From assembly GCA_024220525.1 (NCBI GenBank), contig JAMYWO010000291.1, forward strand, positions 1-46,992: a stretch of 46,992 bases of DNA. Reading direction: 5' to 3'. The notes beneath the pieces were generated by a model. That model saw only the letters and a list, made by a program, of their open reading frames with translations. It did not search any database and was not told the DNA's origin. Numbering within the stretch: the first letter of the stretch is position 1; each line of letters starts with the position of its first letter. Below are positions 1 to 46,992 of this stretch, piece after piece. Source of the stretch: Cochliopodium minus. Its lineage: Eukaryota > Discosea > Himatismenida > Cochliopodiidae. Made by a program: the position numbers and the translations under genes.

Positions 1-63
1 TTATTTTTTATTTTTTATTTTTTATTTTTTATTTTTTATTTTTTATTTTTTATTTTTTATTTT
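1..63. repeat. (TTTTTTA)n heptamer array at the window start
   Basis: About nine tandem copies of a T6A heptamer. They lie in the intron just upstream of the first LRR exon of copy A. The same unit fills the matching intron of copy D (about 20008-20085), which supports these being two ends of one broken array. Confidence 0.9.
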
Positions 64-98
64 TTGTTTTTTAATTTGAGATTTTTTTCAAAAAACAG

Positions 99-1707
99 TA
101 TTGCTAAAGGTTTCAGGGACTTGGAAGTTTTGGAGTTGGAAGGCTGTTCCATAACAGATTTTGGAGTAAAATTGGCCTTGATGACTCAAAGACTCAAAGT
201 CTTGAACATCTCCAAATGTTTGAATGTAACAAACAAATCAATAGAGTTTCTTTCTGCTTCAAGGACTCTATCTGAAATTTCTTTGAGGAGTTGTATAAAC
301 GTTACGAACGAAGGATTTGAACTCTTTAACAATGGTAATTATATATTTTATTATTTTATTTGCTTTTATTTTATTATTTATTTTATTATTTTATTTTCTT
401 TTATTATTTATTTTATTATTTATTTTATTATTTATTTTATTTTATTATTTATTTTATTTTTATATTTTATTTTTTATTTTTTTAAAGGTTATAATAACCT
501 AAGGAGATTAGATATTAGATGGACCAATGCGGTCACCTATGAGACCATTTCTCAACTCAAAAAAAATAGGACTTACCTCGAAATTCTCCATACTGCCAGT
601 CCATCTTTCATTTGCAAAGAAGGTGTTGGTAAAAATTTGATTTAATTTTTGTATTTTTTTTCGTAAATTTTTAATTTTAAAGTTTTTTTTCGTAAATTTT
701 TAATTTTAAAGTTTTTTGAGAATTAATTTTTTTAAGAGAATTTTTTTAAGAGAATTTTTTTATTTTTATTTATTTTTTAAAAAAGATCCTAGTATTGTGA
801 TAGAAGGGGATGTTGTTAAATTCACAAAGAAATTTAATTTTCCATTGATGGTCAAATCTAATGCTCCTATACCCCGAGATATAGGAATTTTTTACTTCGA
901 AATGAAAGTTTTAGATGAAGGAGAAGATAATGCGTAAGAAAAAAAAAAATAAAAAGTAAAAAAATAATTATTCATAAAAAATAATAAAAAATAATTCAAA
1001 TTAGTATCGGGATTGGTTTGGGTAATAATAAATAATTTCTTTTCAATTTTTTTTTTTTACTTTATTTGTTCATTTTTTTTTAAGCACAAATATCTCACTC
1101 ACTAACGGGAATGCCTGGATGGTTTGTTGGTTCATTTGGATATCACGTATTAAATTCTTAAAATAAAAAAGATGATTTTTTTAAACTGATTTTAAATTAA
1201 TTAGGGAGATGATGGTTCTAAATTCACAGGGGAACAAATGGGGCAAGGTTCTGAATACGGACCTTTATGTAAGCATTATTTTTATATTATTTTTCTTTAT
1301 ATAACAATGATTATTGAAATTATTTTTCTTTATTTTTCTTGCAAATAGATGGGTAAAAAAAAAAACTTTTAAAATGTAAAAATTAAATTTCAATGAAAAT
1401 AAAAAAAATAGTAAGGATGATATTGTTGGATTAGGATGGGATCAAAATAGTGATTGTATATTTTTTACTAAAAACGGTAAAAAAACAAAGAAAAATGTAT
1501 CATACATTTTAATAGATTACCTTTTGTATCTTTTTTTCAAAAAATTTAGGAAAATTTCTTGGGGTTGCATTTGAACACGTTTCGAAAGTGACAAAAGACA
1601 AGAGTTTTTACCCTGTCATTGGTTCTTTCACTCTCAATTCTTCTGTGTCTCTCAACTTCACAAACAACTTTGTATTCGATGTGAAAAATTACATCAAGAA
1701 AAAATAA
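99..1707 (+). CDS. CLU-LRR-SPRY protein, 3' part only (copy A)
   Basis: Nine exons: 99-334, 488-628, 786-933, 1005-1021, 1085-1146, 1205-1268, 1349-1352, 1412-1476, 1550-1707 (TAA). The first encodes cysteine-type leucine-rich repeats (LEVLELEGCSITDFGVKL, LKVLNISKCLNVTNKSIEFL), as in F-box/AMN1 LRRs. The rest encode a SPRY/B30.2 domain (core ISHSLTGMPGWF, then GLGWDQNSDCIFFTKNG). The seventh exon is only 4 nt (ATGG) and is needed to give GPLYGKDDIVGLGWDQ. The SPRY frame is intact. No CLU part is present because the window starts in the preceding intron. The first exon begins in the phase left by the last exon of copy D (15121-19819), and D+A is a whole number of codons, so A is probably the missing 3' end of D. 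Copy B begins 114 bp downstream in the same orientation. The domain family is clear; the cellular role is not known. Confidence 0.85.
340..487. repeat. T-rich low-complexity intron (ATTTTATTATTT-like)
   Basis: Intron between two LRR exons of copy A, made almost wholly of irregular TTTTATTATTTA units. Reading frames through it are artefacts of the low complexity. Confidence 0.8.
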
Positions 1708-1821
1708 AAAACTACTAAAAGGAGATTTTGAGTAATCATTGTAGAAAGAAGTTAATTACATAATAAAAATTGTTTCAAAAAAAATAAAAATAAAAATATA
1801 AAATAAAAATAAAATATAAAA

Positions 1822-4800
1822 ATGGAAAATGATGAAGAATTTGATTATATGAGGGAGAAAAAAGAAGGATTTAATTACAAATTCTTCGGATACCTTGAGG
1901 ATTTGGAGAATGAGAAAGAGGATCTTCAATCCTCCCTCACCATTTCTGGCAGCATATCTAATTATAGTGAATCACAAGACAGTATCAATAATTATAAAGA
2001 TATCTCTGACAAAAAAATAGATGTATTGAATATCAATGAGAATATTATCAAAGAAAAGGAAGAAATCAATTTTTTTGCAAGCAATTCATATTCAATAGCT
2101 TCCCATATTGAAGATTCTACTCAAAATTCCAATGAAAATTTATTTTCTAATGAAAATAATTTGAAAGAGAAATATATTTTATCAAATAGTTATAATGAAA
2201 TTCCTCAAGAGAAGGAATTAAAAAATAATAAAAAAGTTGATGATAATCAATTTGAGGATGGAAATATTGAAAACAATAAAATCAAAAATTATGTGGAAAA
2301 TAATCAAAATAATGAAAGTGATAATTCTCAAAATCTTGGACCTATCCACTCCACTGTTAATGATCTGTGCCATATATTGAGTGTAGACAAAATGAAAGAA
2401 AAGAGAGAAGATCCCCTTTTAAAAGTGATAGAAAAGATAGATACTCTCAAAAAAACAGAGATCAGGGTAAAAAACACATCGAATAATCTATCTCTTTTGA
2501 TCTTTTTCATTAATTCTTAAAAGGAATTGTTAAATGAGATAATAAAGTTTTCTAGTAATCCGAAAAACATTTTATTGGAAGCAATAAACCAAGAACAAAC
2601 ATTGTAAAAAAAAAATAAATAATTCAAAATTAAAAACTTTATTTTTCTTATTCTTTTTAAACTATTTTTTATTCAAAGAAAATTTGTGGAAAAAAAATTG
2701 GGAATTAGACACCCCATTTACAATAATGATTTAAATTGGAACGAAAAGTTTCAAATGTTGGTTACAGGAGGAGAAGACAAATACGAAGAATTGACGGAAT
2801 TAGGAAACGATTTTGTTGAATGTGCTTCTAAATATGGGAAAATAATCATTTCGGAGCTTCATTTAAGCTATGGAGAAAAAACAATCAAACCTTTAACTGT
2901 AGGAGGTAAATATAAATTTTAATAATCTTATTTTAATTATTATTTTTTTAATTGTTGATTATTTATTTCATTAGGGGTGATGGGAGGATTGAAATATTGT
3001 TGTCAAGGAATATTCTTCAAATTTGCGTTGGATACTGAAGAAAAATTGTACAGAGGAGATCAAAATGCAATGAAATCTGCAGGACGTAAAATCTAACATT
3101 TTCAATATTTTTTCCATAATTTTTTATCTTTATTTTAAAAAGATGAATTAAAAAGTTTGATAAGTATTACAAATTGTAGAATAGAAGGTAAAAAGAATAT
3201 TTATCTCTTTTTTAGAGAATAATTTATTTTTTAAATTAGAAATACATCTTCCATTGATGGCACTGATAGATTACAGAGGATACAGGTTGATTTGTTCTAC
3301 TACCCTCCCAGTATCAAATAATACTCTCAAATATGGATCTTCAGGTACACCTATTTTTATTTGTTTTTTTTTTATTTGTTAACTTTTTAAAATAGATGGA
3401 GGAAAAACTGTTAAGTATTCCTACCCAATTCACGAAAAAATGAAAATGTTATCAAAAGAGTTGAACATTAGTGAACACAAAGTTAAAAACCCCTTTAAAT
3501 GTTTTAATTGATTTTTGTTTTTATTACTTTTTTTTTTCTTTCTTTTTGGATAGGTTTTGAATGTAAATATTTTTGGACCTGGTGATATTGAAGGACATAT
3601 TGGAACAGATGGAAGATTCTGTAATACCAATTTCATTTTTTTTTATTACAGTTTTTATTGTTTTAATTCATACAGATCTTCTTGATCTTGCAAGGTTATT
3701 CCCTCCAGAAACTCCAAAGAAAAATGAGACACATACCATTTGGTTTCAACTTTTGAGGCAAATAATTTTTAGTGTTTTATTTCAATTTTTTAGATATTGA
3801 ATAAAATTTTTTCAAAAAAAAATAATATAGACCTGAATTTGTTAGAACTTTGCAGTAAGAATTATTTTATAATATTTAAAATTATTTATACTTTTCAAAT
3901 ATTACTTATTAAATTTTTAAATAGGACACCTCTTTGTTCAGGTATTTTTTTATAACATTTTTTCAGTTTATTCAAAATTTTTTTTATACTTTTATCAATT
4001 TTTATTCAAAAAAAAAGATACATTCTCAGGTTGGGACAAAAATGATCCATTTCATATGAACCACATTAAAACTGTCAAAACTGCTGTAAAAATTTTATAT
4101 GAAGAAGTTATACCCAAAGTCTCCAAAAAATTCGATCATAAAATTTCAAAGAGTCATGACAATGAAATAAGAATTTCAGAAATGCTTCACAGAGAAGGTA
4201 TTAATTGTAGACATTTGGGTTATGTCAGAAATTTATGTAAAGAAAAAATTGCTTTACAAAATCTCATCACAGAGATGGTAAAAAAAAATAATATTATTAT
4301 TTAAATTTAAATTTAAAAGTTAATTTTTTTACTTTATTTTTTCTTTTTAAAAAATATTTTAAAAAGGTTGCAAGAGCTTTGAAAGTAAGAATTCAGTCAA
4401 AATTGAGAGATGAAATGAAAAAATTAAGATTATCGGAAGAAGAACCTTACAGAATCCTCCTCGTCAAAGAATTCAATCTTATCCTTGGTTCTCATGTAAA
4501 TTCAAAAAAATTTTGGAACAAAAAAATCAAATCTATTGTAATTGAGAAATTTGGACCTGTTTCCCTTTTCGAAGATGAAAAAAATCAAGATTTTGATCTT
4601 AGATTATCTCTTGTTTCTACTTCTTTGCTTTTCAAAAAGATTTTCCATTTAATAGGTGTTAGATTGACAAAAAAGGCCAAGAAAGATCTCTTCTCAAATT
4701 TGGAAAACAAAAACAGTCAGTTTGAATTTATTAGTAAAAACATTTTTTTTATTATTTTTTAAAAAGTAATTATATTTTTTCTTTTTAGCAAATGATATTG

Positions 4801-7782
4801 ATAAAATGTACGAAAGAGGTAAAATTTTATTTATTTTAATTTCAAATTTAATTTCAAATTTAATTCTAATAATTTTTTTTTGACAGTAAAACATAGTAAT
4901 TTAATTGATTTTTCTGCAAGTTGTTCTCTTGTTAAAAAGTAAATTTGAATTTTCATTTAAAAATCATACATCATATCATAAATATTCTTTAATAAATTAG
5001 AGGAAACGAAATATTCCTTACCAAAAGGGGAATGGGAGAATGTTTGAGAATGTATAAAATGGCAAATATCAAATTTAGACACGCAGCTGCATCCTTATCT
5101 GTAAAAAAAAAAAAATAGTTAATACAAAAAATTTTAAATTTATTTTTTGAAAAAAAAAAATTCAAAGACAAATCCAGAAATATTCCTAAATTGGTAATTA
5201 AAATCAAAAAAAAAAAATTATTTTATATTGATTTTCTACTTTTTATTAAGGGGGAGATTATTAATTCAAATGGGTGAATTGTGGATAATGAAAACAGAAG
5301 AGTTAAAGAAAGAAAATGTGGAAGAATCTCACGAATACAAGAAAACAAGAAAAATATTCTCAAACGCTTACGAAGTATTCTCTAATGCTCTTCATTTATC
5401 AGACTGTTTCAAATCCGTTTATGAATCAATCAAAGAATTGCATCTTAAAGGTTTTTTTTTATTTGAAAAATTAAGTTTAAATTTAATTTCAATTACCTTT
5501 TTTCATAAAAAGCACAAACATCTTCTGGGATCACTCAAATTCTCTATTTTTATGGTGTAAGGAGAATTTACCTTTCAATTTTCAACACTGAGAATAAACT
5601 TGTCAAAAAACATCTCAGAAGCACACAATTCTTTGAATTTTCTTCAATATTAAGGTAAATATTTAACTTGAATCTTATTTTTCAAAAATTGTTTTAAATT
5701 TTTTCTCCAAAATTTTTTAAATTTATTATCAGATGGTGTGGAGTTTTTAATTTAAGAAAAAAAAATGAACAAAACTTTAAAGACTTTGCAGACATTTTAG
5801 AAAAGTTGACTTCCAAAAAACGTTGTAAACAAAAAAAAAAACTTTTTTTATTATTTTTTTTATTTTTGACAAAAATATTTCTCCTTTTTTAAAAATAGCT
5901 TTGATGAATAAATGTGAAATACTTTTTGACTCTTTAAATTTCAATTCGAAAGAAATGAATAGAAAACTGGAGATTGTTTCACTCATTAGATCTAGCATCC
6001 ATTCTTCACTGATCACAAAATGCCTCAAAGAGAAAATGGAAAGGCAGAAAATAGAGAATATTGATTTTTCAGATTGTAAAGCATTAACTGGGTTTGCTTT
6101 TGATAAATTTGTTCCATCTTTGACCAATTTAAAGCATGCAAACTTTAAAAATTGTAATTTATTCGACGGAACAATTTTGGCTCTTCAGTAAGAAAATTAT
6201 TAATAATTAGTGTTTTTTTTGATTTAAATAGTTTTTTTGATTTTATTTTATTTTTATTTTTATTTTATTTTATTTTTATTTTATTTTATTTTTATTTTAT
6301 TTTATTTTTATTTTATTTTTATTTTTATTTTTTTGATTTTATTTTTATTTTTTTCTTCTAATTTTAATTTTAAATAAAAAGTAACATAAAATATTTTGAA
6401 CTTTTGGAGACTTTGGACTTGGAGAATTGTTACGTATCTGACATTAGTGTACAAAACCTAAAAGAATTGAAAAATCTGAAAATACTCAACCTTTCAAGGT
6501 GTTTACATGTCACCAACAGATCTATCAAATATCTTTCCGAACTGGTTTCATTAGAAGAAATTTTATTAAGGAATTGTTTAAATATAACAAATGAAGGGTT
6601 TGAAAACTTCTACATCGGTAATTTTCATTAAATTTCTTTTAATTATATTTTTATATTTTTATATTTTTATATTTTTATATTTTTATATTTTCATTTTTAT
6701 ATTTTTTTATTTTTTATTTAAAAGGATACAACAGTTTGAAGATTATTGACATCAGGTGGTCAAATTCTGTTTTTTATGAATCTATTTCTCAACTCGAAAA
6801 AAACAGGCCTAAACTTGTAATCTTACACAATTCTTGTCCATCATTTATCAGTAAAGAAGGAATTGGTAAATATTTTACTTAATTTATTTTAAATTTAATT
6901 TTAATAATTTTTTGATTTTTTAAAATAAGATCCAAGTATTGTGATAGAAGGGAACGTTGTTAATTTCACAAAAAAGAATACTTCTCCCTTGATGGTAAAA
7001 TCAAACGCTCCAATACCAAGAGGAATTGATCTTTTTTACTTTGAAATGAAAGTATTATATTCAGAAGAAAATAGTATCGGGATTGGTTTGGGTAATAATA
7101 AATAATTTCTTTTCAAATTTTTTTTTTTTTACTTTATTTATTCATTTTTTTTTAAGGACAAATATCTCACTCACTAACGGGAATGCCCGGATGGTTTTGG
7201 TTCATTTGGATATCACGTATTAAATTCTTAAAATAAAAAAAGATTATTTTTTTAAACTGATTTTAAATTAATTAGGGAGATGATGGTTCTAAATTCACAG
7301 GGCAAGAAACTGGGCAAGGTTCTGAATACGGACCTTTATGTAAGCATTATTTTTATATTATTTTTCTTTATATAACAATGATTATTGAAATTATTTTTCT
7401 TTATTTTTCTTGCAAATAGATGGGTAAAAAAAAAAACTTTTAAAATGTAAAAATTAAATTTCAATGAAAATAAAAAAAATAGTAAGGATGATATTGTTGG
7501 ATTAGGATGGGATCAAAATAGTGATTGTATATTTTTTACTAAAAACGGTAAAAAAACAAAGAAAAATGTATCATACATTTTAATAGATTACTTTTGTATC
7601 TTTTTTTCAAAAAATTTAGGAAAATTTCTTGGGGTGGCATTTAAACAAATTTCGAAAGTACAAAAGACAAGAGTTTTTACCCTGTCATTGGATCTTTCTC
7701 TGTTAACACATCTGTCTCAGTTAATTTCACAAACAACTTTGTATTCGATGTGAAAAATTATATCGAGATTAACAAAAAATAA
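1822..7782 (+). CDS. CLU-LRR-SPRY protein, complete tandem copy (copy B); SPRY frame broken as sequenced
   Basis: 29 exons, about 1313 codons: 1822-2466, 2524-2603, 2679-2905, 2975-3085, 3143-3187, 3240-3344, 3396-3481, 3554-3620, 3676-3757, 3831-3854, 3925-3941, 4018-4277, 4367-4733, 4789-4818, 4887-4938, 5001-5100, 5168-5193, 5251-5450, 5513-5654, 5733-5824, 5899-6187, 6382-6617, 6725-6865, 6930-7091, 7157-7216, 7276-7339, 7420-7423, 7483-7547, 7620-7782. Order of parts: acidic Asn-rich disordered N terminus (exon 1); CLU core (LNWNEKFQ, MGGLKYCCQGIFFKFALD, GPGDIEGHIGTDGRF, LLDLARLFPPETPKK, LLRPEFVRTL); helical central region (EMLHREGINCRHLGYVR); TPR-like helices; cysteine-type LRRs; SPRY. 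Known CLU proteins are cytosolic RNA-binding factors affecting mitochondrial distribution; the LRR and SPRY additions suggest a recognition role (inference). Oddities: intron 9 (from 3758) has a GC donor where copies D and E have GT. Two small deletions relative to copy A (2 nt near 7195, 1 nt near 7655) shift the SPRY frame between them, giving an early stop near 7281. Confidence 0.88.
6238..6345. repeat. (TTTTATTTTA)n intron repeat
   Basis: Pentamer/decamer T-rich repeat in the intron before the LRR exon of copy B. This is the same intron that breaks copies D and A, but here it was assembled through. Confidence 0.8.
6640..6724. repeat. (TATATTTTTA)n intron repeat
   Basis: About eight copies of a decamer-like T-rich unit in the intron between the LRR exons of copy B. 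Confidence 0.75.
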
Positions 7783-9949: not shown

Positions 9950-11561
9950 ATGAGTTGTTTTGTATCAGAAGGTAATGAACAGGCCAAAATGATGGATTTT
10001 GGAAAATTGATAATATGGCTAATAAGTGGAGATGATTTGGCACCCAAAGATATGAATGGTTTCTCTGATCCATGTAAGATATATTCAAAAATAAAATATT
10101 TAAAAAAATTTTATAATTTTTAAAAACAGTATATATGCATACATAAAAATTATAAAAAAATTATAAAATTTTTATATCAGCATTCAAAATATATTTGATA
10201 GTGTTATTTCTTTCTCAATTTTTAAATCCATCCCTCTTTTATTTGATATTTTTCAAGATTGCATCATTGGATTCACCAATAATTTGAGTTTGGAAATCAA
10301 AAAAACAAAGGATATGTATTTAGGAGATAAAATAAAGAGTAAAACCAAAAAGAAGGTAAATGAATCTAATTCCCCAAAATATATTTCAACTTTATTAAAT
10401 AATACAAACTATATCAACTCATCAAAAAGAATGATGCCTTCAAATTTCTTTTTGATATATTCAAATTTAAAATCATAATTATTCTACTGAATAAATAAAA
10501 GATATATCATCTTATAAAACCATTTATAGAGATCATTCTAAATCTTATTTATATGTCAAATTTTATTTAAAAGATATGAAAACTAAATCTGCCAAACCAA
10601 TGAAATTATTGAGAGAAATTTATTTATTTTAAAATAAAAAAATGTTGATTTTCTTCTTTATTAATTCACATTCATTTTATGAGAATCAACTTTAGAGCGA
10701 AATATAAATGAATCACTATAATCTTAATTAAATATTTATTGTTTAGTATTTTATCAAATATTTATTTTATCAAATAATTTTTTATGTTTGTTTAATTTTA
10801 TTTTTTTCTTTTTTATAATTTTGTTTTTGCTAATTTTTTTTTTATTAAAAAAATAATAGACATTAAATCCGGTTTGGGACCAAAAGTTAGTGGTGAAAGT
10901 GTTTAGTAATAACAGCAAGACAATACATGGCTTGAGAATTGTGAGTTGGGACAAAGATGTAGGTAAGAAGGACGACTGGTTGGGGCAAATCGTGATAGAA
11001 TCAAAGTAAATTTAAAATTAAAATTAATATTGAATAAAAATAAATAAGAAAAAAAAAATTGAAAAAAAATTAAAAATTAAAAAAAAAATTAAAAATTAAA
11101 ATAAAAATAAAAATGAAAACTTAGAAAAATTAAAATTTGTGAAACTGAAAAATTTCAAAAAAAATAAAAATACAAAAATGAAAATTAAAAAAATTGTAAT
11201 ACAAAATTAAATAAAAAATTAATTTCTAAAAGTTTTGAAAATAATAAATGAAAAATAAAAAAGATAAAAAAATTATTAAAAATTAAATTAATAAATTCAT
11301 TCTAAAATTTTGAAAAATTTTTTTGTTTGTTTAGAAAATTAGAAAGCGGAAAAATAATAGAATTTAATGAGAAACTCCTTCCAGGAGAAGGAAAAAAGAG
11401 AAAGGAGGTGAAGGGGACCATAAAGTTCAAGTGTTTGTTTCTCCCAAACAAAATAGAGAGGGTTTATCTTGATGGCCATTATATCTTCAACGAAATTGAC
11501 GAAAAAGTTTTGGCTACCCTTGTCCCTTCCAAAGTTTCCCATGGCTTCGATTCCAAACAAG
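9950..11561 (+). CDS. C2-domain protein, 5' part (cut by the assembly gap)
   Basis: Four exons: 9950-10073, 10258-10355, 10860-11005, 11335-11561, about 198 codons before the break. Together they give one C2 domain: GKLIIWLISGDDLAPKDMN, GFSDPYCIIGF, KSKTKKKTLNPVWDQKLVV and RIVSWDKDVGKKDDWLGQIV. The aspartates of both calcium-binding loops (KDMNGFSDP and WDKD..KKDDW) are present, so calcium-dependent membrane binding is likely. The stretch between SDPY and KTKKK is longer than usual for C2 domains. The start is the first ATG, 27 residues before the C2 strand. The last visible exon ends in phase 1 and is followed by a T-rich repeat and the N gap, so the 3' end is missing. The third intron piece (10356-10859) is unusually long at 504 nt. 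Confidence 0.8.
10356..10859 (+). other. Long intron of the C2 gene with an unexplained open stretch
   Basis: 504 nt, several times the usual intron length here. The part at about 10503-10631 lacks intron-like T runs and is open for some 43 codons (includes SYKTIYRDHSKSYLYVKFYL), ending in TAA. It follows an AAAAG that could act as an acceptor. The flanking C2 exons join perfectly without it. I do not recognise the peptide; it could be an alternative last exon or a relic. Confidence 0.35.
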
Positions 11562-11639: not shown

Positions 11640-11743
11640 TATTTTTTATTTTTTATTTTTATTGATTTGTTTTTATTTTTTTATTTTTTTATTTTTTTAT
11701 TTTTTTATTTTTTTATTTTTTTATTTTTTTATTTTTTTATTTT
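11640..11743. repeat. (TTTTTTTA)n array abutting the gap
   Basis: T-rich 8-mer array (about eleven units) in the intron after the last visible C2 exon. It runs directly into the N run. Its unit and strand differ from the A-rich array on the other side of the gap. Confidence 0.85.
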
Positions 11744-11881
11744 NNNNNNNNNNNNNNNNNNNNNNNNNNNNNNNNNNNNNNNNNNNNNNNNNNNNNNNNN
11801 NNNNNNNNNNNNNNNNNNNNNNNNNNNNNNNNNNNNNNNNNNNNNNNNNNNNNNNNNNNNNNNNNNNNNNNNNNNNNNNNN
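11744..11881. other. Assembly gap (138 N)
   Basis: Run of n. Left of it is a C2-gene intron ending in T-rich repeat. Right of it is intron 16 of a CLU-LRR-SPRY gene starting in (TAAAAAA)n. The flanks belong to different genes, so the stated gap size need not be real. Confidence 0.99.
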
Positions 11882-11952: not shown

Positions 11953-11990
11953 GAAATATTAAAAATAAAAAATAAAAAATTGTTATTTAG

Positions 11991-13549
11991 ACAAATTTTG
12001 AAATATTCTTAAATTGGGGAAAACTTTTGTTGCAAATGGGAGAAATTTGGATTACAAAGGCGGTCAGATTAGAATACACTGAAGGAGAGAAAGTGTTGGA
12101 GTCAGTTGCCTATGAAAAAGCCCGCAAAATTTTTGTGAAGGCTGGTGAAGTTTTGTCCAATGCTCTTTCCTTGTCAGACTGTTTTCAACCTATTTACAGT
12201 TCGGCAAAAATGTATTTATTAATGGGTAAAATTTTTATTTTATTTTATTATTTTATTTTTTATTATGTTAAGAAATATTTTTTAATTTTGCAAAATTTTT
12301 TTTATTTAGAAATTTATTTTTTTTTTCAAAATTTCTTTCATTTCATTTTTCAACATTTTTTTAAAGCACAAACTGCTGAAGGAGTGAACCAAAGATTGCT
12401 ATATTTTTGTGCTTATGAACTTTATCTTTCTATTATTATTTCCAAAAACGTTTCTAAAGTTAAACATATCAATCCCAATTTCATCTTTGAATATTCTTGC
12501 ATTTTGAGGTTAAAAAAAAAAAGATTTTTATTTTAAAAACTTATTATCTTTTTTTAATTTTTTAGATGGATAGCTGTTTTGGGATTAAACAAATCAAGCA
12601 TTATTTTGGGAGAAGCAGCAAGACTCATTGAAAAATGCTTCAAATATAAAATGAGTATTCGAATTTTTCTTTTATTTTTTATTTTTTATTTTTTATTTTT
12701 TATTTTTTATTTTTTATTTTTTATTTTTTATTTTTTATTTTTTATTTTTAGGACAAATAGACGATATATTCACTTCATTAAATTTTAGATCAGACAAGAT
12801 GAGTGATAAACTAGAAATAGTTTCGATGTTGAGAGTGGGTTGTTTCTCCTTTTTCATTCTCCAAAAGATTGCCAAGATCATCCGGGACAACAACATCAAA
12901 AAACTCGATTTCTCCAACATTACCACCGTCACTTCCTACTCTGTCCTAAAACTCAACGAGCTCATTAAAAATGTCAAAGTTCTAAACTTGGATGGATGTA
13001 TAAATATCAATGATAATGTATTTAGGTAAAAAATAAAATTTCTTTTACTTTTAAATTTTATTTGGATTGATCTTTAAAATTTTTTTTTGGAATTGAAAAA
13101 TTGTTTAAATTTTATTTGAATTCATCTTTAAAATTTTTTTAAAATCCAAAACTGTTTTTAAAATTTAAATTTTGATATCTTTTTTTGATATTAATTATTA
13201 TTTAAATTATAAAAATTTTTTGTTCAACAAATTTTAATATTTTTCTTTTTTGTTTTTTAAAAAAAAAATTTTTTTTTTTTGAATTAGTAACTTGAAAAAT
13301 TTGGAGAATTTGAAAGTCTTGAGACTAGAAAATTGTACTGTCACTGATTACGGAGTAGGCTATCTCATTGAATTGCAGAAGCTCAAAAAGTTGAATTTGT
13401 CGAATTGTTTGAATGTCACCAACACATCCATAGAGTTTCTTTCTTCTTCAGAGTCCCTAAAGAGTATTTCATTAAGAAATTGTAGAAATGTGACAAATGA
13501 GGGAATTGAAATCTTTAATCATAGTAATTTTTTTATTTTTTTTTAAATT

Positions 13550-13580
<31 letters not shown>

Positions 13581-14919
13581 TATTTTTATTTTAAATTTTT
13601 TTTTTTTATTTTTTAAATTAATTTTTTTTTAGAATACATTAATTTGAGGAAAATAGATATCAGATGGAATAACGCAATCACTTATGAAACTATTTCCCAA
13701 CTCAAGAAAAACAGACCTCATCTAAAAATTCTTCATACAGCTTGTCCCTCCTTCATATGCAAAGAGGGAGTTGGTAACAAAATTTTTTTTTATTTTATAT
13801 TTTATTGATTTCATTATTTTTATCATTAATTTTTTAATTTATATATATATATTTTTTTTTTTTTAAATTATTTTTTCTCAATTTTTTTTTTTTAATTTTT
13901 TTTTAATATTTTAAAAAAAGATCAGAGTATTGTGATTGAAGGGAATGTTATCACCTTTACTAAAAAAGGAGTCACTCCCTTGATGGTAAAGGCAAACGCT
14001 CCCATTCCAAGAGATATCGGTGTTTTTTATTTCGAAATAAAAATTTTGGAAGAGGGAGAAGACAAAGCGTAAAATAAAAAATAAAATACATATTTCATAC
14101 ATTATTTTTGTTAACATTAACATTAATGTTCATTTTATTTTTTTTATTTTTAGTAATGGAATAGGTTTAGGTAAAATTTTAATTCTTAAATTTTGATTTA
14201 GTTATCAAAAAAAAAATCTTTTTTAATTTCAAAAAAAAAATATTAGCACAAATATCTCATTCATTAACTGGAATGCCTGGTTGGTTTGCTGGTTCATTTG
14301 GATATCACGTAAAAAAATTTATTTTAGAAAATAAAAATTTGATTTTATCTTTTTTCTTTTTTTTGTTGTTACTAATCTATTAGGGAGATGACGGTTATAA
14401 ATTCATTGGAGACAAAATTGGATATGAAGAATACGGGCCTCCTTGTAACACTTTTTAAAAACAGATTTTTAACAAATTTTTTAATTTTTAATTTTACAAA
14501 AAAAAAAATCAAAAAGATGGGTAAAAATTTTATTAATTATTCATTTTTAATTAAAACCCAATCTTTATTTTCAAAAAGTAAAAACGATGTTGTGGGATTA
14601 GGTTGGGACCAAGAAAATGACTCTGTATTTTTTACCAAAAATGGTAATTTTTAATTTAATTTTTTTGATTTTAATTTATTTTAAACTTTTTTTCTAAACA
14701 GGAAAAGATCTTGGGGTTGCTTTTGAGAAAGTTTCTCGTATTACAAAGGATAAAAGCTTTTATCCTGTTATTGGTTCTTTCACTGTAAGCTCCTCTATTT
14801 CTGTCAACTTTGCGGAGAATTTCGTTTTTGATATGAAAAAGTACATAGAGAACCGAATCGTTAGTAACAAGAGCCAAGAAAAGATCCAATTTGTTTATAA
14901 TTCAAAAGAAGATAACTAA
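11991..14919 (+). CDS. CLU-LRR-SPRY protein, 3' part (copy C)
   Basis: Thirteen exons: 11991-12225, 12367-12508, 12566-12654, 12752-13025, 13288-13523, 13633-13773, 13921-14068, 14154-14170, 14247-14308, 14384-14444, 14517-14520, 14579-14643, 14702-14919 (TAA). They encode the TPR-like helices (SNALSLSDCFQPIYSSAKMY), the cysteine-type LRRs (LKKLNLSNCLNVTNTSIEFL) and an intact SPRY domain (ISHSLTGMPGWFAGSFGYH, GLGWDQENDSVFFTKNGKDL) with a longer tail than copies A and B. The first exon fuses what are exons 17 and 18 in copies B and D, so that intron is lost. The 4-nt microexon ATGG and the 17-nt exon are both kept. No CLU core precedes it because of the gap. The exon content begins exactly where copy E stops, and E+C is a whole number of codons, so E and C are probably halves of one gene. 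Copy D begins 201 bp downstream. Confidence 0.87.
12668..12749. repeat. (TTTTTTA)n array in a copy C intron
   Basis: About twelve T6A heptamers filling the intron between 12654 and 12752. It shows that these arrays occur inside genes. Confidence 0.9.
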
Positions 14920-15120: not shown

Positions 15121-18100
15121 ATGGAGGTTAATTTGTTTGAATCTCAAGATAAAAAGGATGGTGAAAATTATAAAATAGCTATTGGAGATGATGATGAAGA
15201 GGATCCTTTTGCACCACCTTCTCCTATGAACCCAAATATGAATGAAAATAATTATAATACCAAATATCACCATCTTAGCGAATCAGACAACAATATAAAT
15301 CTATCAGATGGAAATATAAAGATAATAAACAATAATTATACAGAAATAAATAATAATAATTATAATGGTAACGATAGCGGCAATAGTTTGAATAATAGCA
15401 ATAATTATTTGATAGAGAATGAGAATTATAAAGAATTGGTTGATCCTAACAAAAAAATGAATATATTAGAAGATAATTTTTATTCAGAAAAGCTAAATAA
15501 TTTTCAGCAAGAGCAAGAGGATGGAGAAACCACAGATTACAAGGAAATAGTCAATTATTTAGCCAGATCTGATGATATGTTGGATGAAAGCACTGAATAT
15601 ATCAAAATCAATGATATTGGCTACAAGGAAATAGGGGATCCTAAATTCAATCCCAAAAAATTGAAGAATGATCCCAAATCACCCAATATGCCCAACAAAT
15701 GGAATTTCATGGGAAGCCCATCGACCAATAATCTCGAGAATATCTCCAATGTGCAGAATGATGTCATAAGCTCGAATGATCCTCTTGAAATCATAAAGGG
15801 CAAAGTATTAAAAATGAATAGAGATGAAGTGAGGGTAAAGAAAAAAAAAACAAAGAATAAATAATAATAATTGAAATTCTTCATTTATTTAATTATTGAT
15901 TCTTCTAATAACCAAATTCATTGTTATTTTTCTAATTTAATATCATTTTAGAAATTGATGCATGATATGATCGATAATAATCCAGATCCAAAATTAATGT
16001 TGATTGAAATGGCAAAACATAATCCTTTTCTGTAACATTTATTTTCAAAATTTTAATTTTTTTTATCAAATCTGAACTATCAAAAAAATAAAAAATAAAG
16101 AAATTTGGTTGAAAAGAGCCTTGATCTACCAACAACAAACACATTTAACTTATCTTGGAACGAAAAGTTCCAAAATTTGGTTGCTGGAGGAGAAGACAAA
16201 TATGAAGAGTTGACGGAATTAGGAAACGATTTTGTCGCTTCTGCTTCTAAATATGGAAAAATAATCATTTCTGAGCTTTATTTAAATTATAACGAAAAAA
16301 CAATCAAACCTTTAACTATAGGAGGTAAATCTAAAATTTAATTATATTCATTTTAATATTTTTTATTTTTTATATTATTTTTTTTATTTGTTGATTATTT
16401 ATTTTATTAGGGGTGATGGGAGGATTGAAATATTGTTGTCAAGGAATATTCTTCAAATTTGCATTGGATACTGAAAAGGGAATGTATAAAGGAGATCAAA
16501 ATGCAATGAAATCTGCGGGACGTAAAATCTATCATTTTCAATATTTTTCCATAATTTTTTATCTTTATTTTAAAAAGATGAATTAAAAAGTTTGATAAGT
16601 ATTACAAATTGTCGAATTGAAGGTAATTATAATTTATAAATAAAAAGCATTTAATATTTTTTAAAATACAATTATTTTTTTTTATTAAAATTTTAACAAT
16701 TACTTTTTAATTAGGAATACATCTTCCATTGATGGCACTGATAGATTATAGAGGATACAGGTTGATTTGTTCTACCATTCTTCCTATTTCAAAACATACT
16801 CTCAAATATGGGTCTGCAGGTCTCATTTATATTTTCTTTTTTCTTTGTCACCTTTTGTTACCTTTTGTTTATTATGATTATTTAATAAAACAGACGGAGG
16901 AAAAACTGCTTTCAATGAATCTCAAGTTGTTAGTGAAAAAATGGAATTGTTAGCTAAAGTACTTAATATCAGTGAACACAAAGTTAAAAACCCCTTTAAA
17001 TGCTAAAGTTTACTTTTGATTTTTAATATACTTTTTTTTTTTCTTTTGGATAGGTTTTGAATGTAAATATTTTTGGACCTGGTGACATTGAAGGACACAT
17101 TGGAACAGATGGGAGATTTTGTAAAACCAATTTTCATTATTTCTTTATTTTGTTTTTATTTTATTTTTGAATCAGATCTCATTGATCTTGCGAGATTATT
17201 CCCTCCTGAAACTCCAAAGAAGGTTTCTCCTCATACTATTTGGTTTCAACTTTTGAGGTAAATAATTTTTTGTTTTGTTTTAATGTGATACAAAATTTTT
17301 TTCAAAAAAAAAATATATAGACCTGAATTTGTTAGAACTTTGAAGTAAGAATTATTTTTAAACATCAAAAAAAAAATAATAAATACTTTTCAAATATTAT
17401 TTATTAATTTTTTAAATAGGACACCTCTTTGTTCAGGTATTTTTTTTTCACATTTTTTCAATTTATTAATATTTTTACATTTCTTTTTTTCATAAAAAAA
17501 GATACATTCTCAGGTTGGGATAAAAATGATCCAAGAAAGAAAAATCACATTAAAGATGTCAAAACAGCAGTCCAACATTTACATCAACATGTTATCCCTG
17601 AATTTGCTGAAAAGTTGGATTCAATTATCAGTAATGATTCTAATTCTGATCTCAGAATTTCAGAAATGCTTCACAGAGAAGGTATTAATTGTAGACATTT
17701 GGGTTATGTCAGAAATTTATGTAAAGAAAAAATTGCTTTACAAAATCTCATCACAGAGATGGTAAAAAAATAACATTATTTTTTAATTTTTTTTACTAAG
17801 ATATTAATAAATTTAATTTGTTTTAATTTTAATTTTCATCATTTCTAAATTATTTTATTTTTTAAAAAGGTTGCAAGAGCTTTGAAAGTAAGAATTCAGT
17901 CAAAATTGAGAGAAGAAATGAAAAAATTAAGATTATCAGAAGAAGAACCATACAGAATCCTTCTCGTCAAAGAATTCAACCTAATACTGGGCTGTCACAA
18001 AGGTTCCACATATTTTTGGACCCAAAAAGTAAAAACTTTGGTTATTGAGAAGTTCGGACATAAAGCTCTTTTTGAAGAAGAAAAATCAACCACTCATGAT

Positions 18101-19819
18101 TTGAGATTTTCTTTGGTTTCTTCCACTTTACTTTTCAATAAGATTTTCCATCTAGTTGGTGTAAAATTGACCAAAAAAGCAAAGAGAGATCTTTTCTTGA
18201 ATTTAGAAAAGAGTACTACTCGTTTTGAGTTTATTTGTAAAAAAACATTTTTTTTTTTGTTATTGTTTTTTGTTAATTTATTTATTTTTAGCTAATGATA
18301 TTGATAAAATGTTTGCAAGAGGTAAAATTTTTTAAATTTTTATTTTTATTTCTAAAAATTTTTTTTTGACAGTAAAACATAGTAATTTAATTGATTTTTC
18401 AGCAAGTTGTTCTCTTGTTAAAAAGTACTAAAATTAATCTTTTTTTTTTCAAATTTAATTCCAATTTTTTCTTTTTTAAAGGGCATATTCTTTGTACGAG
18501 AAAAAAAATGGAGAAGCAGAATGTTTGAGAATGTTTAAAATGGCAAACACAAAGTTCAAAGATGCAGCTGCATCTCTATCTGTAAAGAAAAAAAAACAAT
18601 TAAAAATACTTTAAGAAAAAAAAAATAAATAATTTTTTAAAAAAAATAAAAGACAAATCCTGAAATATTTTTGAAATGGTAATTTCTATTTAAATAAAAA
18701 TTTTTTGTCATGAATTATTTTTTTTAAAAAATTAAAGGGGAGGACTTTTGTTACAGATGGGAGAAATTTGGATCACAAAGACTGTCAGATTAGAAAGTGT
18801 GAAAGACTTAAAGGGGAACATTTTTGAACAACCTTCCTACATCAAAGCCCACAAGATCATGAAGAAGGCCGGTGAAGTTTTTTCCAATGCTCTCACTCTC
18901 TCTGACTGTTTTCAATCTGTCTACAACTCCGCAAAAGTTTATTTATTAATGGGTAAAAAAAAATTTACTATTTAATTCAAGTTATTTTTATTTTTATTTT
19001 TAAATTATTAATTTCTTTTAATTAATTTTTTTTATTTTTTTTTTTTTGATAGCACAAACTGCAGAAGGTGTTAACCAGAGACTTTTGTATTTATGTGCTT
19101 GTGAACTTTATTTGTCAATTATCAAGTCTAAAAATCAAGCACTTAGAAATTTTATTACTCCTTCTTTTATTTTCGAATATTCATGCATATTGAGGTAAAA
19201 AAAAAAGAAATTTTATCAAATAAATTACAAAAATAACAAAAAAATTATTAGGTGGTCTGGTGTTTTAGGAATTTATGAGGCAGGAAGAGTATTGTTTGAA
19301 GAGTCTGCAAGATTAATTGAAAAATGCATGAACTTTCAAATGCGTAATTTTTTTTTTTTTTAATTTAATTTTTTGATGTTTTTTCATATTTTATTTTTTA
19401 TTTTTTTATTTTATTTATTTTTTATTATTTTATTTTTTATTTTTTATTTTTTATTTTTTGTTTTTTATTTTTTATTTTTTATTTTTTATTTTTTATTTTT
19501 TATTTTTATTCGATTTATTTTTTATTTTTATTTTTTATTTTTAAATAGCACAAATGGAAAACATTTTTTCGTCTCTTGACTTTACCTCCAAAAAATTGAA
19601 GGATAAACTAGAAGCAGTATCCATGCTTAGAGCTTCTATTTATTCACAGCAAATCTTGAGAAAAATAGTTCAAAGACTGATTTTTGACAGAACAACAGAG
19701 TTAGACTTTTCCAACATTTTTGCGATGAACACGATTATAGTTGAGAAACTTGTTGAAGTGGAGAATCTGAGCATTTTGAGGTTGAATTATTGTCCTTACA
19801 TTGATGATCGGATATTCAA
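15121..19819 (+). CDS. CLU-LRR-SPRY protein, 5' part (copy D)
   Basis: 21 exons: 15121-15834, 15952-16031, 16101-16324, 16411-16521, 16578-16622, 16715-16819, 16894-16982, 17054-17120, 17176-17257, 17321-17344, 17420-17436, 17502-17761, 17870-18236, 18292-18321, 18373-18424, 18482-18581, 18653-18678, 18738-18952, 19053-19194, 19252-19343, 19549-19819. The start is the ATG opening an acidic, Asn-rich, disordered region (DGENYK, EEDPFAPPSP, repeated NYKEL/DYKEI/GYKEI, closing DPLEIIKGKV). Then come the CLU core (LSWNEKFQNLVAGGEDKYEE, GTDGRF, IDLARLFPPETPKK, LLRPEFVRTL), the central helical region (EMLHREGINCRHLGYVR), TPR-like helices, and the segment before the LRRs. It ends in phase 2 at an intron donor, and the LRR and SPRY exons are absent before the n at 20086. 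Copy A begins with the next expected exon in the matching phase; D+A would give 1335 residues. Confidence 0.88.
19384..19546. repeat. T-rich heptamer-like array in a copy D intron
   Basis: TTTTTTA-type units, slightly degenerate, filling the intron between 19343 and 19549 of copy D. Confidence 0.85.
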
Positions 19820-20007: not shown

Positions 20008-20085
20008 AAATTAATTTTTATTTTTTATTTTTTATTTTTTATTTTTTATTTTTTATTTTTTATTTTTTATTTTTTATTTTTTATT
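20008..20085. repeat. (TTTTTTA)n array ending at the ambiguous base
   Basis: About ten T6A heptamers in the truncated intron after exon 21 of copy D, ending at the single n (20086). It matches the array at positions 1-63. Confidence 0.9.
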
Positions 20086-20086
20086 N

Positions 20087-20176: not shown

Positions 20177-20241
20177 GATATTAACATTATAAAAAAAAAA
20201 TAATTTTTTGGAAAAAATTGTTTTTTTATATTCCTTTTAAG

Positions 20242-42991: not shown

Positions 42992-45900
42992 ATGGAACCA
43001 CAGTATCTCATTGATTATATTAACTATTATGATGAAGATAAAAGGGATGGTGAGAATTATAAATATGTTGAAGAGAAGGAGGATGATGATAGTGATGAGG
43101 ATCCCTTTGCTGATATCAGACCCTTGCCTTTTAACATCCAATCAACATCAAAAAAAGAGAATAAAGAAGAAGGGAGAAAGATTAATGGAAATATGTTCAA
43201 TAATGATCCTCAGGATGCATTTGATAATGATAAAGAGGATATAGATGAGAATAAATCATCTTCTACCAATTATGAAGAGAATGATATTCATTATTACAAG
43301 CCTTTGAGTGCTAGCGATTCCAATAGTGCACTCAATTTAACGTTATGCAGTCCAAGGGAAAAGAATAATGAAAAAGATGATAAGGATACACCATTGAATG
43401 TATTTGATAAAGAAGATAAACTAGAATTTACATTAAATAATTTATCAGAAGATACCTCCAATTATGATGATATTGATTATCAAGCAATTTCACCAAGACC
43501 ACTTGATTTGAAGGATCAAAAAAATATATCAACAGATAATACCAAAGTGAATAAGAATATTTATGATAATATAAGCACCAATCTAAATCTGAATTTCCAA
43601 TCAACATCCAATCCATTTTTGAACGATAAATATCACGATATAGAAACAGATCTAATTGAATCTCCCAAGGGTAACATCAGACCTCCCATAGATATCTTAA
43701 ATAACAGCATAATAGATCCAAATAATATTTCTTCGAGCCCTATAATGGGAAAGATTGGTAGAGATACAGAGAACAAATATGATTTTGATTATCAGCTGGT
43801 TACTCCAAAAAAAGAAGGTGATCTAAAAAATCATCTCTATATTGAAAATGATCTCGATACATCCAAATCACCACTCAATTATAAAGAACATAATGATTCT
43901 TCCAACAGTGATTTGTCCAACAAATCAATCGAGATAAATGATCAATCAATCAAAGAGAATCTCATCAACAACAAGAATAAAAGTAATGAAAACAACATCA
44001 CTAAAAGTGAGAGCAATAATAGCTCTAGTGACTTTTTTGTGGTGAGACCAATAAGTAGGGAGATTAGCATGATCAATCTCCACAACCCTATTAACCAACA
44101 AGATACAAGAAGGAAGCTTATCAATCCTACTGATCCTTTGGAGATTATCAAAGGAAATGTCAACAAGATGAAAGGGCAGGAATCAAAGGTAAAACCTTAA
44201 ATTTTAGAGATCAAATTTTTTTTCTTTTTTTAACTATTTAATTATTAAACAGAAAAAAATACTGGAAATCATAGAAAAATGCAAAGATTATAATTCTTTT
44301 TTGATTGAAATGGCAAAACATAATCCTTTTCTGTAACATTTTATAATTTTAATTTTTGTTTTTTAATCATATTCTAACATCAAAAAAAAAACTAAAGAAA
44401 TTTGGTTGAAACAAGTCTTGAATTACCATTAACAAACGTATTTAACTTATCTTGGAACGAAAAGTTCCAAAATTTGGTTGCTGGAGGAGAAGACAAATAC
44501 GAAGAGTTGACACAATTAGGAAACGACTTCGTCGCCACTGCTTCTAAATATGGTAAAATAATCATTTCTGAGCTTTATCTGGATTATCACGAAAAATCAA
44601 TCAAACCTTTAATGTTCGGAGGTAAATCTAAAATTTAATAATATTCATTTTAATATTTTTTTATTTTTTTATTGTTATATTACATTTTGATTGTTTATTT
44701 ATTTTGTTAGGGGTGATGGGAGGATTGAAATATTGTTGTCAAGGAATATTCTTCAAATTTGCATTGGATACTGAAAAAGGATTGTATAGAGGTGATCAAA
44801 ATGCAATGAAATCTGCGGGACGTAATATCTAACATTTTCAATATTTTTCCATAATTTTTTATCTTTATTTTAAAAAGATGAATTAAAAAGTTTGATAAGT
44901 ATTACAAATTGTCGAATTGAAGGTAATTATAATTTATAAATAAAAAGCATTTAATATTTTTAATTACAATTATTTTTAATAACAATTACTTTTAATTAGG
45001 AATACATCTTCCATTGATGGCACTGATAGATTACAGAGGATACAGGTTGATTTGTTCTACCATTCTTCCTATTTCAAAAAGTACTCTCAAATATGGTTCC
45101 TCAGGTACGAAAACAATTAGTTTTCATTTATTAATTAATTAAATATTTGAAATAGATGGAGGAAAAACTGTTAAAAACGATTCAAGTATGATCAACGAAA
45201 AAATGCAAATTTTAGCTAAAGAATTGAACATTAGTGATCACAAAGTTAAAAACCCCTTTAAATGTTTTAATTGATTTTTGTTTTTATTACTTTTTTTTTC
45301 TTTCTTTTTGGGTAGGTTTTGAATGTAAATATTTTTGGACCTGGTGACATTGAAGGACACATTGGAACAGATGGGAGATTTTGTAAGACCAATTTTCATT
45401 CATTTTTTCATTTATTCCTTGATTTTGATTTATTTTAAATCAGATCTCGTTGATCTTGCAAGGTTATTCCCTCCAGAGCCTCCAAAGAAAGAATCTCCTC
45501 ATACCATTTGGTTTCAATATTTGAGGTAAATATATTAAAGTCATTTAATTTGTGTTTTATACAATTTAACATGTTATTTTTTTTTCTCAAAAAAAAAAGA
45601 CCTGAATTTGTTAGAACTTTAGAGTAACTTCCAAAAAAAAAAATTTATAAATTTTTTCATTTCAATTCTAAAATCTAAAAAGGATACCACTTTGTTCAGG
45701 TATTTTTTTCTTTAATTTTTAATTATCATAAATTTTACAATCGAAAAAGATACATTCTCAGGTTGGGACAAAAATGATCCAAACAAATCTAAACATGCAA
45801 AAGACATTAAACAAGTAGTCAAAGTATTATACAACAAAGTAATTCCTGGTTTTGCTTCAAATTTGGACAAATTCAATGATCACAATCCAGAAGCTAAAAT

Positions 45901-46866
45901 AAGGATTTCAGAAATGCTTCACAGAGAAGGTATTAATTGTAGACATTTGGGTATTGTTAGATATTTGTGTAATAAAAAAGCTGTATTGCAAATTCTCATC
46001 ACAGAGATGGTTAAAAAATTTTTATTATTTTAAAATTTTTCTTTTTTTTTAATTAAATTTTTATTTTTATTTTTTAAATTTAATTTTTTTATTTTTTATT
46101 TTTAAATACTTTTAAAAGGTTGCAAGAGCTTTAAAAGTAAATATTCAGTCAAAATTGAGAGAAGAAATGAAAAAATTAAGATTATCAGAAGAAGAACCAT
46201 ACAGAATCCTTCTCGTCAAAGAATTCAATCTTATCCTAGGTTGCAGTATCAACTCAAACATATTTTGGAACAAAGAAGTAAAAATTTTGGTTCTTGAAAA
46301 GTTCGGACAAAAAGCTCTTTTTGAAGAAGAAAAACTTCCCACTCATGACTTGAGATTTTCTTTGGTTTCTTCCACTTTGCTTTTCAAAAGAATCTTTTTT
46401 CTTCTCGGAGTTCAGCTGACTAGAAAGGCAAAGAGAGATCTTTTCTTGAATTTAGATAAGAGCAGTTCTCATTTCGAGTTTATTTGTAAAAAATAAATAC
46501 TAAAAAATATTATTTTTTAATGTTTATTAATTTTTTTTTATTATTTTTATTAATTTTTTTTTCTTTTCAGCGAATGATATTGAAAAAGTTCAAGCAAGAG
46601 GTAAAATATTTAAGAATATCATTTTTGGTTTTTACTTTTAATACTTATTTATTTTAGCTAAACATAGTAATTTGATTGATTTCTCTGCAAGTTGTTCACT
46701 TGTCAACAAGTATTTTAAATTTTTAAAATAATCAAATTTAATTTTAAACAAATTATTTTAAAAAAGGGCATACAAATTTTTTGAAGTAAAGAATGGAGAA
46801 GCAGAATGTTTGAGAATGTTCAAAATGGCAAACTCTAAATTCAAAGACGCAGCTGCATCTCTATCT
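42992..46866 (+). CDS. CLU-LRR-SPRY protein, 5' part (copy E), running off the window
   Basis: Sixteen exons: 42992-44188, 44253-44332, 44398-44621, 44711-44821, 44878-44922, 45000-45104, 45156-45244, 45316-45382, 45444-45525, 45600-45623, 45683-45699, 45750-46009, 46119-46485, 46571-46600, 46658-46709, 46767-46866. Exon 1 (399 codons) is the longest disordered N terminus of the family: acidic, rich in Asn, Asp and Ser, with DGENYKYVEE, DEDPFADIRP, NYDDIDYQAIS, DYQLVTP and the shared closing block DPLEIIKGNV. Then come the IEMAKHNPFL helix, the CLU core (WNEKFQNLVAGGEDKYEELT, GTDGRF, VDLARLFPPEPPKK, LLRP replaced by YLRP) and the central helical region (EMLHREGINCRHLG). It stops in phase 0 after AAASLS, followed by (TAAAAAA)n to the window end. 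Copy C (11991-14919) supplies exactly the next exon; E+C would encode 1513 residues. Confidence 0.88.
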
Positions 46867-46914
46867 GTAAAATAAATTAATAAATAAAAATTAAAAAATA
46901 AATAAAAAATCAAA

Positions 46915-46917
46915 TAT

Positions 46918-46954
<37 letters not shown>

Positions 46955-46992
46955 AAATAAAAAATAAAAAATAAAAAATAAAAAATAAAAAA
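46915..46992. repeat. (TAAAAAA)n heptamer array at the window end
   Basis: About ten A-rich heptamers in the intron after exon 16 of copy E, reaching the last base. Same unit and strand as 11882-11952. Confidence 0.9.

What the first reader, a model, noticed from the sequence alone, without database searches (positions are those of the whole stretch)
1..46992. Broken CLU-LRR-SPRY copies are exact complementary halves: the three segments appear to be in the wrong order
Copy E ends in intron 16 inside (TAAAAAA)n at the window end, and copy C begins in that same intron inside (TAAAAAA)n right after the N gap. Copy D ends in intron 21 inside (TTTTTTA)n at the n (20086), and copy A begins in that same intron inside (TTTTTTA)n at base 1. 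No exon is missing or doubled, phases match, and the summed coding lengths are whole codons (E+C 4542 nt, D+A 4008 nt). Placing the segments as 20086-46992, then 11882-20085, then 1-11743 turns four fragments into two whole genes. It also puts the cut GALE and C2 genes at the outer ends. The alternative, four independently truncated copies, needs several coincidences.
Basis: partly seen in the sequence, partly recalled or inferred. Interest (0 to 1): 0.9.

Follow-up and report, generated by a model that had tools for sequence, protein, structure and literature searches.

The report
Genome scaffold pieces in reverse order
The four broken genes are not real: this piece of a published amoeba genome was glued together with its segments in backwards order, and two other pieces of the same genome show the same mistake, so gene order in that assembly should be rechecked.

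Summary
The window is the whole scaffold C288 (46,992 bp). Its half genes pair exactly: E (exons 1-16) + C (17-30) = 4542 nt; D (1-21) + A (22-30) = 4008 nt. Both are open, phases match, and the same 7-bp array flanks each restored junction. No close partner was found elsewhere in the genome. The supported order is 20087-46992, 11882-20085, 1-11743: the printed order reversed, strands kept. Four further split genes on two other scaffolds show the same reversal (RasGEF and a MORN-like gene on C7; an ABC transporter cut inside Walker A and a sulfate permease on C1); the permease partner's side and strand were predicted in writing beforehand. All 6 split genes whose two halves I located on one scaffold are reversed; many broken genes had no located partner. 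0 of 28 printed single-n joins read has the same array on both flanks. C1's length (649,451 bp) identifies the Cochliopodium minus draft genome (PMC9198077), scaffolded by SSPACE with artificial MateMaker mate pairs. A mis-set mate orientation would give this pattern; that cause is inferred. An assembly artefact, not biology.

The parts
1..65 (.). (TTTTTTA)n array at left edge of segment 1, remnant of intron 21 of copy A
   Evidence: period-7 scan
99..1707 (+). copy A: exons 22-30 (LRR-SPRY 3' half); partner of D
   Evidence: exon model
1822..7782 (+). copy B: the only CLU-LRR-SPRY copy lying inside one segment; SPRY frame broken; exons 25-30 nearly identical to A
9950..11561 (+). 5' part of a C2-domain gene, cut at right edge of segment 1
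   Evidence: C2 PF00168 2.9e-17; exon hits
11670..11743 (.). (TTTTTTTA)n period-8 array at right edge of segment 1
11744..11881 (.). 138-N scaffold gap: false join between segments 1 and 2
   Evidence: too small for the missing 5' half of C plus the rest of the C2 gene
11882..11952 (.). (TAAAAAA)n array, remnant of intron 16 at left edge of segment 2
11991..14919 (+). copy C: exons 17-30, 3' half; partner of E
   Evidence: exon model
15121..19819 (+). copy D: exons 1-21, 5' half; partner of A
   Evidence: exon model
20015..20085 (.). (TTTTTTA)n array, remnant of intron 21 at right edge of segment 2
20086..20086 (.). single n: false join between segments 2 and 3
   Evidence: one of 28 such joins compared
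20087..20176 (.). dispersed ~90-bp inverted-repeat element (MITE-like) at left edge of segment 3
   Evidence: 38 of the 40 scored matches are copies elsewhere, 84-97% identical over about 90-146 bp; 453 first-look candidates
20240..21422 (+). 3' part of a UDP-glucose 4-epimerase-like gene; model positions before 79 missing
   Evidence: TIGR01179 hits; PF16363 1.8e-32
42992..46866 (+). copy E: exons 1-16, 5' half; partner of C
   Evidence: exon model
46932..46992 (.). (TAAAAAA)n array, remnant of intron 16 at right edge of segment 3

Best explanation
Scaffold C288 consists of three contigs printed in reverse order without being turned over. Supported order: 20087-46992, then 11882-20085, then 1-11743, all on the printed strand. 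It then carries a head-to-tail row of three CLU-LRR-SPRY genes (E/C, D/A, B), with the cut epimerase and C2 genes at its two outer ends. The error is not local: two other scaffolds of this assembly (C1, C7) show it. Shown: the restored genes, and the reversal in all 6 split genes whose two halves I located on one scaffold. Inferred: the short-read contigs broke where AT arrays outgrew the assembler's k-mer, and SSPACE then ordered them with artificial mate pairs (MateMaker, made from the 10x assembly) whose orientation was declared the wrong way round. A pair that really says 'X then Y' is then read as 'Y then X' with strands unchanged, and the estimated gap becomes twice the insert size minus both contig lengths minus the true gap.
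For: Complementary halves with matching phase and no internal stop; no close partner found elsewhere. RasGEF domain on C7 split exactly at 1-78 | 79-181 of PF00617, in reversed order, phase 0|0. C7 MORN-like gene: the same 14-bp array on both reversed ends, phase 2+1. C1 ABC transporter: Walker A GINGA-G-KST restored; PF00005 rises from 36.3 to 66.5 bits on joining. C1 sulfate permease: partner predicted in writing, found on the predicted side and strand, at a contig edge in a like 9-bp array, phase 0|0. 0 of 28 printed single-n joins, against 5 of 6 reversed joins, have the same array unit on both flanks (the sixth looks the same by eye). G000:C1 is 649,451 bp, the paper's longest scaffold; methods: SPAdes, MateMaker inserts 200-50,000 bp, SSPACE. 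Gap arithmetic with round inserts chosen afterwards: C7 Q/R 2x5000-5759 = 4241 against 4090 printed; C288 1/2 2x10000-19947 = 53 against 138 printed (lengths; sums by hand).
Against: No reads were available. Many broken genes have no located partner: in the window the epimerase and C2 genes; on C7 a GH31 gene and PX-, TPR- and GH30-looking genes; WH1 on C1 (prediction 1: nothing N-terminal on C1); myosin pieces on C84, C79 and C496 (3 of 18 myosin loci). One 100-N join (C45) is in the correct order, with an exact 77-bp overlap, so not every join is reversed. The paper's supplementary commands could not be read, so the orientation setting is inferred. The inserts used are not listed in the main text, so the gap arithmetic is a fit; with a 5 kb insert the C7 P/Q pair (9024 bp together), printed as n, fits only if about 1 kb or more is missing between them; the C288 segment 2/3 join (35,110 bp together) needs large inserts and a tolerated negative gap. 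The cysteine-rich stretch restored on C7 is not recognised by Pfam. Over exons 22-30 as a whole A is closer to B (80.0%) than to C (74.3%), because of the A-B tract in exons 25-30.
Confidence: 0.92

Rival explanations
1. Four independently truncated copies (pseudogene halves) in the printed order.
For: Tandem families do decay, and copy B in the same array is broken in its SPRY exons as printed.
Against: All four truncations fall exactly on contig edges, in only two introns, in complementary halves, with open frames and matching phases. Unrelated genes on other scaffolds show the same complementary pattern.
Confidence: 0.02
2. A local misjoin only: the scaffolder was confused by the similar CLU-LRR-SPRY copies and the AT arrays; the rest of the assembly is fine.
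For: The copies are 80-87% alike in exons 2-16, and arrays of 8 or more units are frequent in the genome (1665 overlapping matches; its backwards control reads the same repeat and so says nothing).
Against: The same reversal with strand kept occurs in other genes on C7 and C1; 0 of 28 single-n joins has concordant flanks, though these joins were mostly met around array matches.
Confidence: 0.04
3. The order is reversed on many scaffolds, but by an output error (contig orientation flags inverted, or paths written backwards) at some step, in the deposit or in the copy searched here, rather than by a mate-orientation setting.
For: Gives the same pattern of order and strand and needs no large inserts for the C288 segment 2/3 join.
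Against: Would make the 4090-N gap a true distance inside one intron of the C7 gene, whereas mis-set mates with 5 kb and 10 kb inserts give the two known N gaps to within about 150 bases (a fit made afterwards).
Confidence: 0.2
4. A real rearrangement, or a chimera of two haplotypes, at this locus.
For: The paper says that haplotigs were a problem in its long-read and linked-read assemblies.
Against: Breaks coincide with N, n and both scaffold ends; no second allele of the halves appears in the lists.
Confidence: 0.01

Closest known systems
Scaffolding order errors from mate-pair orientation mix-ups (RF read as FR) in SSPACE-type scaffolders (recalled; the listings showed no paper on this exact case, none of those papers was opened for it)
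   Same: Order of neighbouring contigs swapped, strands unchanged, gap sizes wrong, a single lower-case n where a negative gap was estimated without sequence overlap (meaning of n recalled)
   Different: Here the pairs were artificial (MateMaker from a 10x assembly), and the swap recurs on all three scaffolds in which I could test it
CLU (clustered mitochondria) domain proteins, PF13236
   Same: N-terminal half matches CLU (7.3e-59) and eIF3_p135 above cut-off
   Different: LRR-like and SPRY region in the C-terminal half; a paper search for this combination with 'amoeb' returned nothing

Membership tests
Order-reversed scaffold (assembly artefact) | Split genes become whole, in phase, when contigs are swapped without turning | tested here: met
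   6 of 6 split genes with both halves located on one scaffold; broken genes without located partner not counted
Order-reversed scaffold (assembly artefact) | Same repeat array on both sides of restored junctions and not of printed ones | tested here: met
   5 of 6 restored (sixth by eye) against 0 of 28 printed single-n joins
Order-reversed scaffold (assembly artefact) | Blind prediction of partner location | tested here: inconclusive
   2 predictions written: permease met; WH1 partner not found
Order-reversed scaffold (assembly artefact) | Sequencing reads span restored junctions | not testable with these tools
   no reads held
Mate-orientation error in SSPACE | Printed gap = 2 x insert - contig lengths - true gap | tested here: inconclusive
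   two N gaps fit 5 kb and 10 kb inserts within about 150 bases; C7 P/Q fits only with about 1 kb missing; inserts known only as 200-50,000
Mate-orientation error in SSPACE | Library file with wrong orientation flag | not testable with these tools
CLU-LRR-SPRY gene | CLU domain above Pfam cut-off | tested here: met
   copy D exons 1-16, PF13236 199.7 bits
CLU-LRR-SPRY gene | SPRY domain above Pfam cut-off | tested here: met
   copy C, PF00622 64.4 bits
CLU-LRR-SPRY gene | Leucine-rich repeats above Pfam cut-off | tested here: not met
   LRR_4 21.8 bits against 27 and LRR_EndoS 23.4 against 27.9; repeats look LRR-like by eye only

The most novel reading that the evidence does not exclude
The flip is a property of the MateMaker-plus-SSPACE recipe as commonly run, so not only this amoeba but other genomes scaffolded that way may carry contigs in locally reversed order. 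One search lists six further papers that hold both names (sea cucumber twice, ctenophore, jellyfishes, sea urchin, tunicate); three of them state that they scaffolded with it (passages), the other three were seen in the listing only, and one of those is a newer PacBio assembly. None of these genomes was tested.
Probability: 0.15. Interest if true: 0.75.

Novelty: not a real feature. Interest (0 to 1): 0.5.

Why it matters
The broken genes are an artefact, but of a published genome. If the order is reversed across its scaffolds, gene neighbourhoods, tandem arrays, gene models that cross contig joins and arguments from neighbouring genes (such as the paper's scaffold-based test for lateral transfers, passage) are affected. 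It should be curable by re-scaffolding the existing data. It may partly explain why only 157 of 255 conserved genes were counted in the genome but 199 of 255 in the gene models (figures; the link is inference).

Tried and rejected
Tried without result: Rfam and tRNA scans of the window (nothing). The C2 gene DNA search gave, apart from the window itself, AT-rich repeat-like matches; the protein search found weak C2 relatives, no partner. Myosin: 15 of 18 loci in normal order, 3 incomplete (C84 2-315, C79 384-593, C496 22-277) without a partner on their scaffold. P4-ATPase: pieces on C101 (741-871 at about 100 kb and 834-930 at 119 kb, minus strand) are compatible with reversal but were left out of the count because their profile ranges overlap. 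Permease search: C338 and C351 also lack the end, so the partner was assigned by scaffold, strand, array and phase, not by score (20 bits, below the cut-off). WH1 prediction untestable. Scaffold edges: 12 of 19 scaffold starts asked for read N throughout, so of these only 7 could be read; 3 of the 7 begin in AT arrays. Gene models are home-made (Viterbi); only those of the window's copies were corrected by hand. PX-, TPR-, Zn2Cys6- and UBR-like labels are by eye and recall; MORN and GH30 matches are below Pfam's cut-offs. Rejected: Pelomyxa schiedti as source (52.4 Mb, 5337 scaffolds). The held copy has 598 contigs and 44.65 Mb against 1474 scaffolds and 50.6 Mb in the paper, so it is a subset or another version. 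Paper reading: PMC9198077 section 20 in full plus passages; PMC8887013, PMC11090492, PMC11184263 and PMC6599738 passages only; all others listing only. Positions of the C1 contig edges given roughly in my notes and in the prediction (288983, 332818, 332820) were refined (288977, 332812, 332814).
Full report
What was claimed.

The window. It is the whole of scaffold C288 of a eukaryote genome of 44.65 Mb in 598 contigs, unnamed in the tool. It has an N run of 138 at 11744-11881 and a single n at 20086. The edges of the segments carry AT arrays of period 7 or 8, except the left edge of segment 3 (20087), which begins exactly at a dispersed inverted-repeat element of about 90 bp.

The halves. A home-made gene finder, followed by hand correction against the other copies, gives 30 exons. 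E ends after exon 16 and C starts at exon 17; D ends after exon 21 and A starts at exon 22. E+C is 4542 nt and D+A 4008 nt, both without internal stops. C lacks intron 17. Summed identities keep the same rank along most of the gene: D is closest to E in exons 2-16 (86.5%; B 83.1%) and to C in exons 17-21 (69.3%; B 65.4%), and A to C in exons 22-24 (71.6%; B 70.3%), as expected if E/C and D/A are genes. Single exons vary (in exons 20 and 21 D is closer to B), and in exons 25-30 A is nearly identical to B (93.5%). The general drop after exon 16 is seen for copy B too, so it is not an effect of the junction. E with A would skip exons 17-21 and D with C would double them, so only the order 3-2-1 with strands kept makes both genes whole (reasoned).

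No other partners. In own-genome searches with a 5' and a 3' query, every match of 70% identity or more lies in C288; relatives outside (C20, C71, C74 and others) reach at most 61%. For the epimerase, one search lists a whole paralogue on C230; the N-terminal matches on other contigs all run past position 79, so no orphan 5' piece was seen. This fits a place at an outer end of the scaffold.

Is it local? 24 have an array on at least one flank, 7 on both, and 0 of 28 has the same unit on both. Neighbours whose ends agree may have been merged silently by the scaffolder, so the n joins may also be enriched for bad ones. This is why gene tests were made.

C7. Four whole contigs in a row and part of a fifth were read. 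A RasGEF gene on the minus strand is cut: PF00617 positions 1-78 lie near the left end of contig 174937-180558 and positions 79-181 at the right end of contig 180560-185920, phase 0|0, with period-7 arrays on both ends. True order: second, then first. A MORN-like gene (21.7 bits, just below Pfam's cut-off) runs to 195770, where the contig ends in a 14-bp array; the contig starting at 185922 begins with the same array and an exon in fitting phase (2+1), which extends a cysteine/histidine-rich stretch. I recalled a UBR-like finger there, but Pfam does not recognise it, so this case rests on array, phase and strand.

C1. An ABC transporter on the minus strand is cut inside the Walker A motif: 'GLLGINGA' near the left end of the contig starting at 288977, 'KSTLMNM' near the right end of the contig ending at 332812; the split codon gives the missing G. 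PF00005 matches 24-115 with 36.3 bits for one half, not at all for the other, and 2-115 with 66.5 bits for the join. Again the true order is the reverse of the printed one. Whether other contigs lie between the two was not read.

Prediction. Before searching I wrote that the missing end of a sulfate permease cut at 420114 on C1 should lie on C1 to the right and on the minus strand if the order is reversed. The search found positions 318-357 at 466656-466775, minus strand (weak match, 20 bits; two other permease genes, on C338 and C351, also lack this end), and the contig there ends at 467052, next to a single n, in a 9-bp array that shares a variant unit by eye, phase 0|0. A second prediction (WH1) could not be tested, because nothing N-terminal was detected on C1.

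Tally. All 6 split genes whose two halves I located on one scaffold are reversed with strand kept (C288 two, C7 two, C1 two). Not in the count: broken genes without a located partner (on C7 a GH31 gene and PX-, TPR- and GH30-looking genes; in C288 the epimerase and C2 genes; the WH1 gene on C1; Myb and bicarbonate-transporter genes on C2; three myosin pieces) and the ambiguous P4-ATPase pieces on C101. In the myosin search 15 of 18 loci were in normal order and none was split within one scaffold. One 100-N join on C45 is in the right order, with an exact 77-bp overlap printed on both sides, which points to a de Bruijn step with k near 77 and to two levels of joining (inference).

Source and cause. 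The longest scaffold of the Cochliopodium minus draft genome is 649,451 bp, the length of G000:C1, and its GC of 26.33% is near that of the window (25.3%). Its methods (section 20 read in full): SPAdes contigs, artificial mate pairs made by MateMaker from a Supernova assembly with inserts of 200-50,000 bp, SSPACE scaffolding, splitting at gaps over 10 kb. If the pairs' orientation is declared wrongly, each true link X-Y is read as Y-X with strands kept, and the gap estimate becomes 2I - LX - LY - g (derived by hand). For the C7 contigs of 3663 and 2096 bp, I = 5000 gives 4241 against 4090 printed; for the C288 segments of 11743 and 8204 bp, I = 10000 gives 53 against 138 printed; the C7 pair of 5622 and 5361 bp gives -983 with I = 5000, printed as n; the C288 pair of 8204 and 26906 bp is negative for inserts up to about 17.5 kb, printed as n. 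Against it, the C7 pair of 5361 and 3663 bp gives +976 with I = 5000 but is printed as n, which needs about 1 kb or more of missing sequence between them (possible, since genes on both edges lack their ends) or another insert. The inserts were chosen after seeing the gaps; related papers used sets that include 5 and 10 kb (passages). That SSPACE prints a single n for a negative gap without overlap is recalled. The flag itself was not seen, so the cause is inferred; an output error with the same effect is the main rival.

Verdict. What deserves attention is that the error recurs in the assembly. Three narrow paper searches for a description of such a flip listed none whose title or shown abstract states it; those papers were not opened.

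Noticed in passing
7075-7782 against 1005-1707: Copy B exons 25-30 and introns 25-29 are 89-100% identical to copy A although exons 22-24 are only 66-79% alike, and intron 24 is missing in B: looks like a recent gene-conversion tract, or read collapse.
   Followed up: partly
7157-7216 and 7620-7782: Copy B has a 2-nt deletion (exon 26) and a 1-nt deletion (last exon) relative to A, with 9 internal stops in between: the SPRY domain is broken or the consensus is wrong.
   Followed up: partly
20087-20176: A ~90-bp inverted-repeat element, MITE-like, with 38 scored copies elsewhere and 453 first-look candidates in the genome.
   Followed up: partly
L041 796-872 and 973-1049 (C45): An exact 77-bp overlap is printed twice around a 100-N gap, so an exon piece of a C2-like gene is duplicated in the assembly.
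   Followed up: yes
C7:198155-212900 (L135, L136, L139): A head-to-tail cluster of at least seven genes with Zn2Cys6-like fingers (motif by eye and recall) near the N-terminus and a shared C-terminal region.
   Followed up: no
C84:93140-94221, C79:163295-164665, C496:115-1617: Myosin head pieces (2-315; 384-593; 22-277) whose remaining parts are not listed on the same scaffold.
   Followed up: no
C201:30100-34399, C101:99665-100397 and 119277-119570: P4-ATPase pieces 1-739 on C201 and 741-871 and 834-930 on C101 (minus strand): genes split within or between scaffolds.
   Followed up: no
   Followed up: partly
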